From: Betaproteobacteria bacterium
GTDB taxonomy: Bacteria > Pseudomonadota > Gammaproteobacteria > Burkholderiales > CAIKXV01
Direction of reading: 5' to 3'
NCBI GenBank assembly: GCA_947458835.1
Contig: CANHBC010000012.1
Span: forward strand, 1 to 35,581
Length of the DNA: 35,581 bases
Made by a program: the position numbers and the translations under genes
Notes under the pieces: model-generated
What the model was told of the DNA's origin: nothing
Databases searched by the model: none
Seen by the model: the letters and a program-made list of their open reading frames with translations, nothing else
Shown: in pieces, positions 1 through 12,922 of the stretch
Layout: the number at the start of each line of letters is the position of its first letter
How positions within the stretch are numbered: position 1 is the stretch's first letter

Positions 1-704
1 CTGACATCGGTCAGCACGATCGACTTGCGGGCAGCGTTGACCCGCAACGCCCAGTCGGCCAGTGAAGGCGTCGGCTGGCCCTGGCCCCCGGCCCCGCCCG
101 AGGCCGCTGCCGCCCGCCGTGGGGGTATCTCGCCTCCCACCAGTTCTACGGGTATGCCGTAACGCTCGCGCAGCAGATCGGCCAGCGTCCAGGCCGTGCG
201 CCGGCCGGCATCGTAGCCCTCGGGCCAGTGGACAAACGCCGGTTCGAACACGATCCGTACCACGCGCCGGTCGCGCTCCCCGGCGACCAGCGTGACGAAC
301 GGAACGTGGCTCGAACGGGAGGACTGGCTCTTCAGGATGCGCGGCGCGCTGTTGAGCATCACGTAGAAGTTGGGATCCTTGCGCACATCCTCCGCGGGAG
401 GAGCCAGCGCAACCGGTGCCTCGATGCGGACGATACTGAACGCATCGCGACGGACCGGCGGCAGGGTGACGCTGCCGCCGGGGGCGATCGACTGGATCGC
501 ATGGGCCGCGGCGTCGAGTGACATGCCCAGTGACACGCCCATCATCTCCGGCGCCCGACCCGCACCGCCATCCAACAGCGGCTGAGCGGCGGCTGCATCC
601 TTCCCGGGGGGCGGCGGTGCAAGGAGAAGGCAGGAACCGGCCGCGAGCAGCAGTGCCCCGCCCACGAGCCGCCGCCGGCCTCGCGGCCGGCGCGTACCGG
701 TCAC
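1..704 (-). CDS. Secreted protein of unknown function (C-terminus beyond window)
   Basis: An open frame runs from a GTG at 704 to the left edge without a stop, about 234 codons, so the C-terminus is missing. The start is an arginine-rich stretch followed by a hydrophobic core (LVGGALLLAAG) and a proline/alanine-rich linker, which is a Sec-type signal peptide; the protein is probably periplasmic or membrane-anchored. The mature part begins with a GVSLGMSLDAAAHAI segment resembling the short 'LGM..eA' repeats of many uncharacterised exported proteobacterial proteins. I recognise no catalytic motif. It starts 18 bp after the stop of the iron-binding protein gene on the same strand, so the two are likely co-transcribed. 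An ATG at 709 in another frame is stopped at once. The function is unknown; an iron-linked role is inferred from position only. Confidence 0.75.
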   Translation of the reverse strand, partial: MTGTRRPRGRRRLVGGALLLAAGSCLLLAPPPPGKDAAAAQPLLDGGAGRAPEMMGVSLGMSLDAAAHAIQSIAPGGSVTLPPVRRDAFSIVRIEAPVALAPPAEDVRKDPNFYVMLNSAPRILKSQSSRSSHVPFVTLVAGERDRRVVRIVFEPAFVHWPEGYDAGRRTAWTLADLLRERYGIPVELVGGEIPPRRAAAASGGAGGQGQPTPSLADWALRVNAARKSIVLTDV

Positions 705-722
705 CGCATCGGGCCGGCTGTT

Positions 723-1778
723 CTACTTCCAGCCGACCCGGTCGAGGATCTTCTGTGCCTGAGCCTGGTTGCGACCGAGCACGCCGATGTTGAACGTCTC
801 GGCCTTGAATTTGCCGAGCGATGCCAGCTCGGGGTTGCGTGGGGCCGCCGTCGATACCACCGGCCACTCGTTGTTGCCGTCTGCGAAATAGATCTGCGCT
901 TCATCGCTGGCGAGGTACTCGAGGAAGAGGCGGGCGGCCACTGGATTCGGCGCGGTGCGCAGCATGCCGGCCCCGGACACGTTGACATGCGTACCCGAAG
1001 TGGCCTGGTTCGGGAACGAGATGGCGACCCGTTCAACCACCTGCCGGTCCTGCGGCCGGGTCGACTTCATCAGACGCACATAGTAATAGGTGTTCGCCAC
1101 CGCGACATCGCACTCGCCGGCGGCCACGCCCAGCAGCTGATCGGTGTCGCCGCCGCGAGGCGGACGCGCCAGGTTGGCGACGACGCCGCGCGCCCATGCC
1201 TCGGCTTTCGCCTCGCCCAGCCGCTCGATCATCGAGGCCATCAGGGACAGGTTGTAGACGTGGTTGCTCGCGCGGATGCAGATCCGCCCCTTGAGTCTCG
1301 GATGGGCGAGGTCCTCGTAGGTCGCGACCTCCTCGGGGCGAACCGTCTTGCGGTTGTAGGCGATCACCCGCGCTCGGGTGGAGAAGCCGAACCAGGTGCC
1401 GTTGGGGGTGCGCAGCTGGGCCGGGATCCGGGCCTTGAGCTCGGCGGAATCGAGCGGCTGGAACAGGTCGAACTGTTCGGCCCGCCACAACCTGCCGGCA
1501 TCGACGGTGATGAACACGTCGGCCGGGCTGTTGCGCCCCTCGCTGCGAACCCGCTCGAGCAACGCATCCTCGCCGGCCTCGATCCGGTTGACCTTGATGC
1601 CGGTCTTGCGCGTGAAGCCGGTGTAGAGCGCTTCGTCTGTCTGATAATGGCGCGCCGTGTAGAGGTTGAGCACCTTGTCGGTCTGCGCAGCCGTCGGCGC
1701 CGTCGCGAGCATGCTGGCGACCGCGCAGAGGGCGCCCGCCAGCGGCAGGGTCAGGCGGAAGGAAAGGAACATGCGCAT
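723..1778 (-). CDS. Fe(III) ABC transporter periplasmic substrate-binding protein (FutA/FbpA family)
   Basis: A 351-aa periplasmic binding protein of the FutA/FbpA/SfuA family, which captures ferric iron for an ABC importer. Residues 1-31 form a signal peptide ending in an alanine-rich cleavage site. The mature start KVLNLYTARHYQTDEALY is typical of the family and holds His44 and Tyr45. The hallmark tyrosine cluster is at 231-233 (NTYYYV), the metal ligands in characterised homologues, and the conserved asparagine/glycine segment SGTHVNVSGAG follows. The ATG at 1778 is preceded by a GAGGA Shine-Dalgarno with 4 nt spacing; a second ATG lies two codons in. No permease or ATPase gene of an iron importer is in the window, so this is an orphan binding protein here. 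The Fur-box candidate at 1871-1889 would make it iron-repressed. Confidence 0.93.
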   Translation of the reverse strand: MRMFLSFRLTLPLAGALCAVASMLATAPTAAQTDKVLNLYTARHYQTDEALYTGFTRKTGIKVNRIEAGEDALLERVRSEGRNSPADVFITVDAGRLWRAEQFDLFQPLDSAELKARIPAQLRTPNGTWFGFSTRARVIAYNRKTVRPEEVATYEDLAHPRLKGRICIRASNHVYNLSLMASMIERLGEAKAEAWARGVVANLARPPRGGDTDQLLGVAAGECDVAVANTYYYVRLMKSTRPQDRQVVERVAISFPNQATSGTHVNVSGAGMLRTAPNPVAARLFLEYLASDEAQIYFADGNNEWPVVSTAAPRNPELASLGKFKAETFNIGVLGRNQAQAQKILDRVGWK

Positions 1779-1842: not shown

Positions 1843-1872
1843 ATCTTAACAAGAAGAATTCTCGTTTGTAAA
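1843..1872 (-). promoter_or_regulatory. Candidate sigma-70 promoter of the iron-binding protein gene
   Basis: On the minus strand, TTTACA (1867-1872, 5 of 6 matches to the -35 consensus) and TAAGAT (1843-1848, 4 of 6 matches to the -10) are separated by 18 bp. They lie in the only AT-rich patch of the neighbourhood, about 65 bp upstream of the start codon at 1778. The -35 overlaps the Fur-box candidate. Confidence 0.5.
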
Positions 1873-1889
1873 TGATAAAGATTCGCATT
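1871..1889. promoter_or_regulatory. Candidate Fur box between iron-binding protein and patatin-like genes
   Basis: The 19-bp site AATGATAAAGATTCGCATT matches the palindromic Fur consensus AATGATAATnATTATCATT at 15 of 18 specified positions and keeps the outer AATG...CATT symmetry. It overlaps the -35 of the minus-strand iron-binding protein gene and, on the plus strand, the first codons of the patatin-like gene (ATG at 1872-1874). Fur bound here with Fe(II) would be expected to block transcription of the iron-binding protein and could also affect the divergent lipoprotein. The site was seen by eye; no matrix score was calculated. Confidence 0.6.
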
Positions 1890-2936
1890 GAAAGGCCGGT
1901 CAGCCGGCTGCTGGCACGCCTTGTCGCGCTGTCCCTGATGCTGTCCGTCGTCGGCTGCGCCCAGCGACCTCTGCCCGGCGGTTCGCAGGCCGGGTCCGCG
2001 TTGCCGGGGCGTCCGTCGGCGGTGGTTCCCGGGGGGGCGCCCTCGACCTCGCCGCCAGCCGTGTCCTCGCCGGCACCGCAGGCAGGGCCAGTGCCGCTCC
2101 CCCAGCAGCCGCGGCCGGAACCGATTGCCGTTGCGCCACGGATCGGCCTGGCGTTGGGAGGCGGTGCCGCGCGCGGCTTTGCGCATGTCGGGGTGATCAT
2201 GGTGCTGGAGCAGGCCGGCATCGTGCCGGATGCCGTGTCGGGTACCAGCGCCGGCGCGGTGGTGGGCGCGATCTATTCGGCCGGATACCGTTCGGCCGAC
2301 CTGCTGCGCATCGCCGGCCAGCTCGCCGAGTCGGACGTGCGCGACTTCGCACTGCCCGACCGTGGCTTCGTGCGCGGCGAGCGGCTGCAGGCGTTCGTCA
2401 ACCGGGCCGTCCAGGATCGGCCGATCGAGAAGCTGAACCTGCGATTCGCGGCGGTAGCCACCGACCTGCAGTCCGGAGAAGCCGTGGTCTACCGGCGCGG
2501 GGACACCGGCCTTTCAGTGCGGGCCTCGAGCGCGGTGCCCGGCGTGTTCCAGCCGGTGCTGATCGGTGATCGCCAGCTGGTCGACGGCGGCCTCACGCAT
2601 CCGATCCCGGTTCGTGCGGCGCGTGCGCTCGGCGCAGAGGTGGTGATCGCGGTCGATATCTCGAGCCAGCCACAGCACGCGCGGCTGGGCGACTCGATCG
2701 ACATCCTGCTGCAGACGTTCACGATCATGGGCCGGGCGCTCGGCGTGGCCGAACTGGCGGAGGCGGATGTGGTGATCCGGCCGGCGACCAGCCGCCTGCG
2801 AGCCACCGATTTCGAGAGCCGCAAGCTCGCGATCGCCGAGGGACAGCGCGCCGCGCGCGAGGCTTTGCCGGAGATCCGGCGGAGGATCGAGGCGGCGACC
2901 CGACGGCTCAGCCAGCGAGTCGACGGGCCCCATTGA
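1872..2936 (+). CDS. Patatin-like phospholipase lipoprotein (RssA-like)
   Basis: A 354-aa patatin-family serine hydrolase. The N-terminus (1-28) is a lipoprotein signal with Cys29 in LSVVGC, followed by a proline/serine/alanine-rich linker to about residue 88. The catalytic domain shows the oxyanion-hole motif GGGAARG (96-102), the nucleophile elbow GTSAG with Ser126, and the dyad aspartate in DGG (Asp238). Family members hydrolyse acyl esters of lipids; the true substrate is unknown, and the RssA name reflects similarity only. The protein is likely anchored in the envelope. No convincing Shine-Dalgarno precedes the ATG at 1872, and the codons around it are unusually AT-rich because a Fur-box candidate overlaps them. 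The start is kept because it supplies a complete lipoprotein signal. The 3' end overlaps the convergent NlpC/P60 gene by 29 bp. Confidence 0.9.
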   Translation: MIKIRIERPVSRLLARLVALSLMLSVVGCAQRPLPGGSQAGSALPGRPSAVVPGGAPSTSPPAVSSPAPQAGPVPLPQQPRPEPIAVAPRIGLALGGGAARGFAHVGVIMVLEQAGIVPDAVSGTSAGAVVGAIYSAGYRSADLLRIAGQLAESDVRDFALPDRGFVRGERLQAFVNRAVQDRPIEKLNLRFAAVATDLQSGEAVVYRRGDTGLSVRASSAVPGVFQPVLIGDRQLVDGGLTHPIPVRAARALGAEVVIAVDISSQPQHARLGDSIDILLQTFTIMGRALGVAELAEADVVIRPATSRLRATDFESRKLAIAEGQRAAREALPEIRRRIEAATRRLSQRVDGPH

Positions 2937-3504
2937 AGCGGCTGACCCAGTAGCGGTCATCCATGTTCACGATATGCACCCGGCCGCCGCGGCTGGGCGC
3001 ATGGATGAAACGTCCTTCGCCAACGTAGATGCCGACGTGGGAGTAGCGCCGGCCACGCGTGTTGTAGAACACGAGGTCGCCCGGCTCGAGTTCGCCCGGC
3101 CGCACGCTGGTGCCCATGCGCGCCATCTCGTACGAATTGTGCGGCAGGGAACGGCCCATCACGCGGTCGAACACGTAGCGCACCAGGCCGCTGCAGTCGA
3201 AGCCGGTATCCGGGTTGCGCCCGCCGAACGAATAGCGGATGCCGATCATCCCCATCGCCTGGAGCACCAGTTCCTGTGCGGAATTCAGCGCCCGGTCGGC
3301 GAAGCTCTGGACGGCCGACGGTGCGGCAGCAGTGAGCGGGACCTCGGAGCCGATGGGAACGGCAGCCTCCGGCCGGTAGTCCTGGGCATGCACGATGCCT
3401 GCGAGGTGGATCGAAAGCAGCGCGCCGGTGGCGGCAACGGCCAGCGTGTGGAGGGCGCGCTGGGTGGCAGATCGCGTCGTGGTCTGGGAGGGAACAAGAG
3501 GCAC
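2908..3504 (-). CDS. C40 (NlpC/P60) family peptidoglycan endopeptidase
   Basis: A 198-aa exported cysteine peptidase predicted to cut peptide stems of peptidoglycan in the periplasm. A signal peptide spans residues 1-40 with probable cleavage after VHA. The NlpC/P60 domain fills about 75-192: catalytic Cys104 in GFDCSGLVRYVF, catalytic His156 in YSHVGIYVG and third polar residue His168 in RFIHAP. The size is typical of single-domain Spr/NlpC-type hydrolases without SH3 or LysM repeats. Translation starts at a GTG (3504) with an AAGGG about 10 nt upstream. The gene converges on the patatin-like gene and overlaps its last 29 bp. A perfect 6-bp inverted repeat lies about 24 nt upstream of the start. 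Confidence 0.93.
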   Translation of the reverse strand: MPLVPSQTTTRSATQRALHTLAVAATGALLSIHLAGIVHAQDYRPEAAVPIGSEVPLTAAAPSAVQSFADRALNSAQELVLQAMGMIGIRYSFGGRNPDTGFDCSGLVRYVFDRVMGRSLPHNSYEMARMGTSVRPGELEPGDLVFYNTRGRRYSHVGIYVGEGRFIHAPSRGGRVHIVNMDDRYWVSRFNGARRLAG

Positions 3505-11817: not shown

Positions 11818-12922
11818 TTACACACCCTGCTTGAGGCTGGCGTTGATGAAGTCGTCGAGGTCTCCGTCGAGCACCCGCTGGGTGTCTCCGACCTCGTGGT
11901 TGGTGCGCAGGTCCTTGATGCGCGACTGGTCGAGCACGTACGAGCGGATCTGGTGGCCCCAGGCGATGTCGGTCTTGGATTCTTCCATCGCCTGCTTTTC
12001 CTCGTTGCGCTTGCGCAGCTCCAGTTCGTACAGGCGCGACTTGAGCATCGCCATCGCTTCGGCCCGGTTGCGGTGCTGCGAGCGGTCGTTCTGGCACTGC
12101 ACGACGATGTTGGTCGGCAGGTGCGTGATCCGGATCGCGGAGTCGGTCTTGTTGATGTGCTGGCCTCCGGCACCAGAGGCACGGAAGGTGTCGATGCGCA
12201 GGTCGGCCGGGTTGATTGTCACCTCGATCGAGTCGTCGACCTCGGGGTAGATGAACACGCTGGCGAACGAGGTGTGCCGGCGGGCGTTGGAATCGAACGG
12301 CGACTTGCGCACCAGCCGGTGTACGCCTGCCTCGGTGCGCAGCGTGCCATAGGCGTAAGGACCAGTGACCTTGATAGACGCGCTCTTGATGCCAGCGACG
12401 TCGCCGCTGGACTCCTCGAGCAGCTCGACCTTGAACTCGCGCCGCTCGCAGAAGCGCAGGTACATGCGTTCGAGCATCTGCGCCCAGTCCTGGGCCTCGG
12501 TGCCGCCGGTCCCGGCCTGGATGTCGATGAAGCAGTTTGCCGGGTCGAGCGGATCGCTGAACATCCGCTGGAACTCCATCTGCGCAACGGCCTTCTCGAT
12601 CTGCGCGATGTCGTCGGCGAGGTGCTCGAGCGTGCCGGTGTCGCCTTCGTTGCGCGCCATCTCGAACAGCTCCTGCGTGTCCGCAAGCATCCGTTCGGTG
12701 TCCTCCATTCGGGTAACCACGTCCTCGAGCTGCTTGCGCTCGCGGCCGAGCTCCTGCGCGCGCTTGGTGTCGGCCCAGACCGCGGGGTCTTCGAGGTCGC
12801 GGCTGACTTCCTTCAGGCGGGTGACCTTGGCATCGAAGTCAAAGAAACCTCCGCAGCTCGGCCGTGCGCAGGCCGAAACCGGCGAGGCTGTCGGAGAGCG
12901 AGTTCAGGCGTTCGGCTTCCAT
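11818..12922 (-). CDS. prfB: Peptide chain release factor 2, with programmed +1 frameshift
   Basis: RF2 recognises UAA and UGA stops and releases the peptide. The gene is read in two frames: codons 1-27 from the ATG at 12922, then an in-frame TGA at 12841-12839 bypassed by a +1 shift, then the main frame to 11818. The product is 367 aa, against 365 in E. coli. After joining, the stop-recognition motif SPF falls at 207-209 and the catalytic GGQ at 252-254, almost exactly the E. coli positions. An annotation without the shift would begin at the ATG at 12720 and lose the N-terminal domain. A GGGAA serves as a modest Shine-Dalgarno. recJ ends 72 bp upstream on the same strand; lysS follows immediately. 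Confidence 0.97.
12839..12852 (-). other. prfB programmed frameshift site
   Basis: On the minus strand the sequence is GGAGG TTT CTT TGA C. It contains an internal Shine-Dalgarno (12848-12852), the slippery CTT (12842-12844) and the in-frame stop TGA (12839-12841), with the canonical 3-nt spacer between Shine-Dalgarno and CTT. Low RF2 slows termination at UGA and the ribosome shifts +1 onto UUU, so RF2 autoregulates its own synthesis. The stop is codon 28; in E. coli it is codon 26. Confidence 0.95.

What the first reader, a model, noticed from the sequence alone, without database searches (positions are those of the whole stretch)
1843..1889. Fur-box candidate over both an iron-uptake promoter and the start codon of a patatin-like lipoprotein
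AATGATAAAGATTCGCATT matches the Fur consensus at 15 of 18 positions in an otherwise GC-rich region. It overlaps the -35 of the Fe(III)-binding protein and the first codons of a divergent lipid hydrolase. Patatin-type lipases under iron control, possibly read with no Shine-Dalgarno, would link iron stress to membrane lipid turnover.
Basis: partly seen in the sequence, partly recalled or inferred. Interest (0 to 1): 0.55.

Follow-up and report, generated by a model that had tools for sequence, protein, structure and literature searches.

The report
Iron switch inside a lipase start
A DNA switch of the kind used by the iron regulator Fur sits between a ferric-iron uptake gene and a lipase-like lipoprotein gene and doubles as the lipase gene's first codons, which points to, but does not prove, control of both genes by iron.

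Summary
The Fur-box observation is confirmed. AATGATAAAGATTCGCATT (1871-1889) is the genome's only site within 3 mismatches of either Fur consensus form tested. A second, unnamed Fur-like dyad lies 22 bp away (1849-1867), inside the one predicted promoter, that of the divergent FutA/FbpA-type gene. Together they form a 44-bp block conserved (0.92-0.96) in nine same-genus genomes between flanks at 0.58-0.63. In the order, 63 of 84 fbpA orthologues have a box upstream, against 1 of 840 shuffles.

The divergent fbpA/patatin pair recurs in several betaproteobacterial lineages. In one other family, 28 of 35 pairs have an in-frame start before or within the box, all in one frame. Of 67 patatin homologues away from fbpA, 66 lack a box; the exception is divergent from an FTR1 iron permease. 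Six others follow a ferritin-like gene.

Fur control of fbpA is near certain. Co-control of the patatin is likely but unproven: no patatin promoter was found, the block also occurs without a patatin, and 21 of those 28 have later starts. Lipid turnover is untested.

The parts
1871..1889 (.). Fur box 1 (AATGATAAAGATTCGCATT); its AATG holds the patatin start codon and it encodes MIKIRI
   Evidence: 3 mismatches of 18; only such site in the genome; mean share of the commonest base 0.96 over 9 same-genus genomes
1849..1867 (.). Fur box 2 (AACAAGAAGAATTCTCGTT), 22 bp from box 1, inside the fbpA promoter spacer
   Evidence: 4 mismatches; mean share of the commonest base 0.91 over 9 genomes; the G003 copy reaches 3 mismatches
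1867..1872 (-). -35 element TTTACA of the FutA/FbpA gene
   Evidence: only promoter-like hit in 1700-1960; 50 shuffles gave mean 0.0
1843..1848 (-). -10 element TAAGAT of the FutA/FbpA gene, with TG before it
   Evidence: only loosely conserved in the genus
723..1778 (-). FutA/FbpA-type periplasmic Fe(III)-binding protein
   Evidence: Pfam SBP_bac_6; closest solved chains 6g7n, 2voz and 2pt1, E 8e-106 to 4e-113, the first two aligned residue by residue; no NCBIfam model over its cut-off
1872..2936 (+). patatin-like phospholipase, predicted lipoprotein
   Evidence: Pfam PF01734 9.3e-28; PlpD 5fqu 1.5e-43; GGGAARG, GTSAG and DGG present
1872..1958 (+). likely lipoprotein signal peptide MIKIRI...SVVGC (by inspection), whose first six codons lie in Fur box 1
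   Evidence: no other ATG/GTG/TTG 10 or more codons before the lipobox Cys

Best explanation
Positions 1843-1889 are a compound Fur operator of two dyads 22 bp apart, in the shared start region of a divergent FutA/FbpA ferric-uptake gene and a patatin-like lipoprotein gene. With iron plentiful, Fe-Fur bound to both dyads would cover the -35 and spacer of the fbpA promoter and block RNA polymerase. The same complex would sit on the DNA of the patatin's start codon and block initiation or early elongation there. In iron shortage Fur leaves and both genes are read, the patatin perhaps from a leaderless or Shine-Dalgarno-poor message. Box 1 is dual-purpose DNA: operator, and coding sequence for the charged start of the signal peptide. 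Shown by computation: sites, conservation, gene families, recurrence of the pair, and one open frame through the box. Inferred: Fur binding, repression of fbpA, co-repression of the patatin, translation from ATG 1872 without a leader. Unknown: the patatin promoter and substrate.
For: Unique <=3-mismatch Fur site in the genome. A Fur-family gene beside a recN-like gene (recN label recalled). 44 conserved bp in the 9 genus loci that could be read, of 11 genus genomes. All other <=3-mismatch hits in the genus are one recurring site, in six genomes. Read in G010 and G005, it lies before an FbpC-type gene with TATAAT beside it; divergent FbpB- and FbpC-type genes were listed in G010 and found by tblastn in L089, L090, L092, L093 and L094. 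Boxes of <=4 mismatches upstream of fbpA orthologues: 63 of 84 places against 1 of 840 shuffles; 59 of 90 in family f49 (no shuffles run). Divergent pair: 11 of 84 places, 35 of 90 in f49 (G238 is in both samples), plus 7 named non-genus loci. In f49, 28 of 35 have an in-frame start before or within the box, all 28 in the same frame; 26 of them with a lipobox found show 15 distinct box-to-Cys lengths. Patatin homologues with a box of <=5 mismatches within -300..+60: 12 of 13 next to fbpA, 1 of 67 elsewhere; that one is divergent from cupredoxin and FTR1 genes. The three Ile codons among the patatin's first six are ATA, ATT and ATT, types that make up 9 of 207 Ile codons in eight window ORFs, these three included.
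Against: No patatin promoter passes the scan on the plus strand; by a loose look the best -10-like hexamer is AAGAAT at 1854-1859, 4 of 6. No conserved element lies upstream of the ATG in f49. The block ATGATAAAGCA plus box also occurs at f49 fbpA genes without a neighbouring patatin, so fbpA alone explains its conservation there. 7 of 35 f49 pairs have the start after the box, and 21 of the other 28 also have an in-frame ATG, GTG or TTG after it. The pair is absent at most fbpA orthologues (73 of 84; 55 of 90). One of 11 genus genomes (G008) also has a hit to the reversed control pattern. G001 has only boxes of 4 and 5 mismatches before a contig end. No binding or expression data were seen for this organism.
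Confidence: 0.72

Rival explanations
1. The operator serves fbpA only. The patatin gene merely abuts it; its transcription comes from a promoter inside the fbpA leader and is not meaningfully iron-controlled.
For: No patatin promoter passed the scan. The promoter-plus-box block persists without a patatin in f49. The pair has come or gone repeatedly: at least 8 changes on the best tree, 5 forced by supported branches.
Against: Any message for the patatin must start in, or run through, the operator. The divergent pair recurs in several lineages, and homologues elsewhere sit beside FTR1 with its own Fur-like box, or behind a ferritin-like gene.
Confidence: 0.22
2. The patatin really starts downstream of the box, and the box is an ordinary upstream operator for both genes.
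For: 7 of 35 f49 pairs have only later starts and 21 of the other 28 have a possible later start; L105, L127, L140, L143, L153 and L159 have plausible starts after the box.
Against: In G000 and G005 no other ATG/GTG/TTG exists 10 or more codons before the lipobox; 7 of 28 f49 cases likewise have none after the box. All 28 keep one frame over 15 distinct spacer lengths.
Confidence: 0.06
3. Another Fur-family regulator (for example the second family member on G000 contig C256, beside a CobW-like gene) uses the site.
For: A second Fur-family gene exists.
Against: The site fits the classic Fur consensus and marks FutA/FbpA-type ferric transport genes. That gene's neighbourhood looks Zur-like (label recalled).
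Confidence: 0.04
4. Chance resemblance in an AT-rich promoter.
For: AT-rich islands favour Fur-like words.
Against: 0 of 100 window shuffles, unique in the genome, 63 of 84 against 1 of 840.
Confidence: 0.01

Closest known systems
Fur box / Fur-repressed fbpABC-type ferric ABC transporters
   Same: Consensus, promoter overlap, and a FutA/FbpA-type gene whose permease and ATPase genes share a further box (site in six genus genomes; genes read around it in G010).
   Different: The operator also covers the start codon and first codons of a divergent patatin-like lipoprotein.
PlpD/RssA-type bacterial patatin-like phospholipases
   Same: Patatin domain with GGGAARG, GTSAG and DGG.
   Different: Lipobox N-terminus (by inspection) and iron-gene neighbours; the RssA model scores below its cut-off (145.6 against 272 bits).
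Iron-regulated phospholipase C of Acinetobacter baumannii (PMC5119829, passages seen)
   Same: Predicted Fur boxes at lipase genes.
   Different: Phospholipase C, not patatin; no fbpA pairing in the passages seen.
Bidirectional promoters with a shared -10 element (PMC12825309, passages seen)
   Same: Divergent genes with overlapping start regions. In the window, the common 18-bp spacing would put a patatin mRNA start near 1854, before its ATG.
   Different: The plus strand has only a 3-of-6 -10 match there. In the f49 layout the same spacing would put the start after the ATG. Not excluded in the window.

Membership tests
Fur operator | match to the 19-bp Fur consensus above chance | tested here: met
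Fur operator | overlap with the promoter of an iron gene | tested here: met
Fur operator | conservation in orthologous regions | tested here: met
Fur operator | Fur protein binds and represses with iron | not testable with these tools
   no binding or expression data
FutA/FbpA ferric-binding proteins | close relatedness to solved iron-binding members, with His/Tyr positions aligned | tested here: met
   alignments to 6g7n and 2voz; ligand role recalled. NCBIfam's nearest models are 2-aminoethylphosphonate and thiamine binding proteins, all under their cut-offs
Patatin-like phospholipase | patatin domain with GxSxG and DGG/A dyad motifs | tested here: met
   activity not tested
RssA equivalog | score over the NCBIfam cut-off | tested here: not met
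   145.6 bits against 272
Bacterial lipoprotein | signal peptide ending in a lipobox Cys | tested here: met
   SVVGC by inspection; lipobox-like motifs in relatives by a simple pattern that sometimes picked a wrong Cys; no signal-peptide predictor was used
Leaderless mRNA | 5' end of the mRNA at the start codon | not testable with these tools
   no Shine-Dalgarno seen; no promoter passed the scan; only a weak AAGAAT hexamer that would start RNA near 1866
Bidirectional promoter with shared -10 | divergent TSSs about 10-23 bp apart around one -10 | tested here: inconclusive
   spacing; weak plus-strand -10; TSSs unknown

The most novel reading that the evidence does not exclude
Some patatin-like lipoproteins are a standing accessory of ferric iron acquisition and storage in betaproteobacteria, found beside futA/fbpA, FTR1 or a bacterioferritin-like gene. 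In many, the Fur operator has been fused into the signal-peptide codons, so that one 19-bp sequence is operator, start codon and part of the membrane-targeting peptide at once. The enzyme may trim acyl chains in the envelope, or of acylated siderophores, during iron shortage (last step pure conjecture).
Probability: 0.3. Interest if true: 0.7.

Novelty: new variant of a known kind. Interest (0 to 1): 0.52.

Why it matters
If the patatin is iron-controlled, it ties a family of lipid acyl hydrolases of unclear function to iron homeostasis and gives a concrete set of gene pairs to test. The dual use of one sequence as Fur operator and signal-peptide start also gives a natural case of coding DNA shaped by a repressor, with a clean prediction: silent changes in codons 2-6 should break regulation without changing the protein.

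Tried and rejected
Chance was rejected. The ATG in the f49 block ATGATAAAGCA was at first read as selected for being a start codon. One search showed the same block at fbpA genes without a patatin (G at that position 0.50 with, 0.42 without); on the other strand it reads TTGAGA-17-TATCAT, a promoter for fbpA. That argument was dropped and only the frame argument kept. A bidirectional promoter was considered; its usual spacing does not fit f49 and is not excluded in the window.

The independent-pairs test is not used as evidence: I had labelled every fbpA-adjacent row as box-bearing, including L311 (best site 6 mismatches), so it is nearly circular. The tree is a quick one with 45 of 115 inner branches open.

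Corrected work: and part used wrong orientations for minus-strand loci and were replaced. One search lost 20 fetched regions because they held little more than the signal peptide; redid all 84 by coordinates. One search misassigned the L157 start (its box was read) and scored L127 from a doubtful start. caught another site in G006 and G001 and was redone for nine genomes; G001 and G004 were left out (broken contigs; genes not found). The lipobox pattern took a false Cys in G003 and G007. L106, counted as non-adjacent, has an FbpA homologue about 4 kb upstream. The second genus site was not found in G000 within 3 mismatches. No structure was predicted.

Literature: nine searches listed no paper that by title or abstract start describes a Fur-controlled patatin beside fbpA. 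Lists were capped (8 of 40, 10 of 11, 10 of 637). Passages were seen of PMC5119829, PMC12825309, PMC4690342, PMC2680988 and PMC9602442; in the passages seen, none links a patatin to Fur or iron.

Full report
What is there. The 19-mer AATGATAAAGATTCGCATT lies at window 1871-1889 and occurs once in the 3,761,512-base genome. It matches 15 of 18 positions of two forms of the Fur consensus, and no other place in the genome comes within three mismatches of either form. The promoter scan of 1700-1960 finds one promoter only, on the minus strand: TTTACA, 18 bp, TAAGAT with a TG before it. The second dyad fills its spacer and the first touches its -35. This is the classic geometry of Fur repression (established knowledge).

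The genes. The minus-strand gene is a FutA/FbpA-type periplasmic protein. Its best solved relatives are 6g7n (extracellular solute-binding protein), 2voz (periplasmic iron-binding protein) and 2pt1 (iron transport protein), E 8e-106 to 4e-113; the RHY, VYN and TYYY stretches of the query align with like stretches of 2voz (their role as ligands is recalled). No NCBIfam model reaches its cut-off; the nearest are 2-aminoethylphosphonate and thiamine binding proteins. The plus-strand gene is a patatin-domain protein (PF01734, 9.3e-28; PlpD 5fqu, 1.5e-43) with GGGAARG, GTSAG and DGG motifs and a lipobox-like SVVGC. Its ATG at 1872 is the ATG inside the box's AATG. An in-frame TAA precedes it directly, and no other ATG, GTG or TTG lies 10 or more codons before the lipobox Cys. 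No Shine-Dalgarno is evident.

Conservation in the genus. Of 11 genus genomes searched, 9 have a <=3-mismatch Fur site; the reversed control pattern hits in one, G008. In the nine genomes whose start region could be read, aligned without gaps on box 1, the mean share of the commonest base is 0.92 in the 25 bases before box 1 and 0.96 in box 1, against 0.58 further upstream and 0.63 in the patatin's following codons. G004 showed neither gene. G001's copies sit at contig ends, with boxes of 4 and 5 mismatches on the fbpA side. The remaining genus hits are one recurring site in six genomes. I read it in G010 and G005, where it lies before an FbpC-type ATPase gene with TATAAT just before it. In G010 it separates that gene from a divergent FbpB-type permease gene, and tblastn finds the same divergent pair in L089, L090, L092, L093 and L094. 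It was not found in the window's genome within three mismatches, whose contig begins at window base 1, downstream of fbpA and short of that point. The genome carries a Fur-family gene beside a recN-like gene, and a second Fur-family gene (recN label recalled).

Beyond the genus. Orthologues of the iron-binding protein at E <= 1e-90 were found in 82 of 300 order genomes, 84 places. Within 300 bp upstream, 63 of 84 places have a site with at most four mismatches, against 1 of 840 dinucleotide shuffles. In family f49, 162 of 250 genomes have an orthologue at E <= 1e-110. I took 90 places, the 30 best delivered as loci plus 60 chosen from the list; 59 of 90 have a site with at most four mismatches (no shuffles run there). 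So a Fur-type box before this gene is a general feature.

The patatin partner. It lies divergently within about 1.4 kb upstream at 11 of 84 order places (7 of the genus, 4 others) and at 35 of 90 f49 places; G238 is in both samples. Among 80 named loci fetched with the patatin, 13 have fbpA divergent next door: six genus members, and L105, L127, L140, L143, L153, L157 and L159. These seven and G058 each have a Fur-like site of 2-5 mismatches in the shared region. Scoring -300..+60 around a mechanically chosen start, 12 of 13 adjacent patatins have a site with at most five mismatches, against 1 of 67 others. The thirteenth, L157, was missed through a wrong start and has its box in codons 4-10. 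The exception among the 67, L098, is divergent from a cupredoxin gene and an FTR1 iron permease gene (PF13473, PF03239). In six more of the 67 (L102, L104, L106, L108, L109, L112) a gene related to L106's ferritin-family protein (PF00210; bacterioferritin by recall) lies directly upstream on the same strand. The patatin tree needs at least 8 changes of the adjacency label, 5 forced by supported branches, so the pairing has arisen or been lost several times.

The box as coding DNA. In 28 of 35 f49 pairs an in-frame ATG, GTG or TTG lies before or within the box. In all 28 the box has the same frame relative to the patatin; the 26 with a lipobox found show 15 distinct box-to-Cys lengths. In the seven with the start after the box, frames are mixed. 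Of the 28, 7 have no possible start after the box, whereas 21 do, so the early start is firm only for part of them. Typical starts read MIKQTRIILN, with the box encoding the last residues. The window's genus uses a related layout: box 1 reads A ATG ATA AAG ATT CGC ATT. Its three Ile codons are of the two types that make up 9 of 207 Ile codons in eight window ORFs, these three included. The simplest reading is DNA under two demands, operator and signal-peptide start. Against over-reading this: the f49 block ATGATAAAGCA plus box also occurs at fbpA genes without a patatin, and its reverse strand reads as the fbpA promoter. The start codon may therefore have been borrowed from an existing promoter rather than built for the purpose.

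How it most likely works. Fe-Fur on both dyads blocks the fbpA promoter and occupies the patatin start region; iron shortage frees both. The first half is close to certain by analogy and conservation. The second is likely (about 0.7) but rests on position, recurrence and the FTR1 and ferritin-like neighbours. I did not find the patatin's promoter: none passed the scan, and the best plus-strand -10-like hexamer is a weak AAGAAT at 1854-1859. Leaderless translation, a bidirectional promoter, read-through from the fbpA leader, or weak constitutive transcription remain open.

Judgement. The known part is an ordinary Fur operator at a ferric ABC transporter. The new part is a recurrent partner gene, a patatin-like lipoprotein, whose start is fused with the operator. 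Nine literature searches listed no paper that by title or abstract start describes this; lists were capped and most subscription papers are not in that library. The lipid-turnover idea remains a conjecture.

Noticed in passing
L078:10697-10715: Second Fur box AAAGCGAATCGTTCTCATT, in six genus genomes; in G010 between divergent FbpB- and FbpC-type genes with TATAAT next to it.
   Followed up: yes
L102, L104, L106, L108, L109, L112: Patatin homologue directly downstream of a ferritin-family (bacterioferritin-like) gene on the same strand, a further iron link without a Fur box of <=5 mismatches in reach.
   Followed up: partly
window 2908-3504: NlpC/P60 gene convergent with, and overlapping the end of, the patatin gene; an NlpC/P60 hit occurs in 22 of 80 patatin loci.
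   Followed up: partly
window 3-704: Gene downstream of fbpA on the same strand, with a similar ORF in G010 (L078:8233-8970, by eye), without a Pfam or NCBIfam match.
   Followed up: no
G000 C256 (L063): Second Fur-family gene directly before a CobW-like GTPase gene, probably Zur (labels recalled).
   Followed up: no
L092: Record CAMDXD010000170.1 is titled Bordetella parapertussis but its patatin groups with the unnamed MAGs of this genus; the title looks wrong.
   Followed up: no
window 11818-12720: ORF resembling peptide chain release factor 2 (recalled) that opens with GTG, perhaps mid-protein downstream of a programmed frameshift; not checked.
   Followed up: no
G038 C4, G048 C2: fbpA and patatin homologues lie several kb apart on one contig rather than adjacent.
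   Followed up: no
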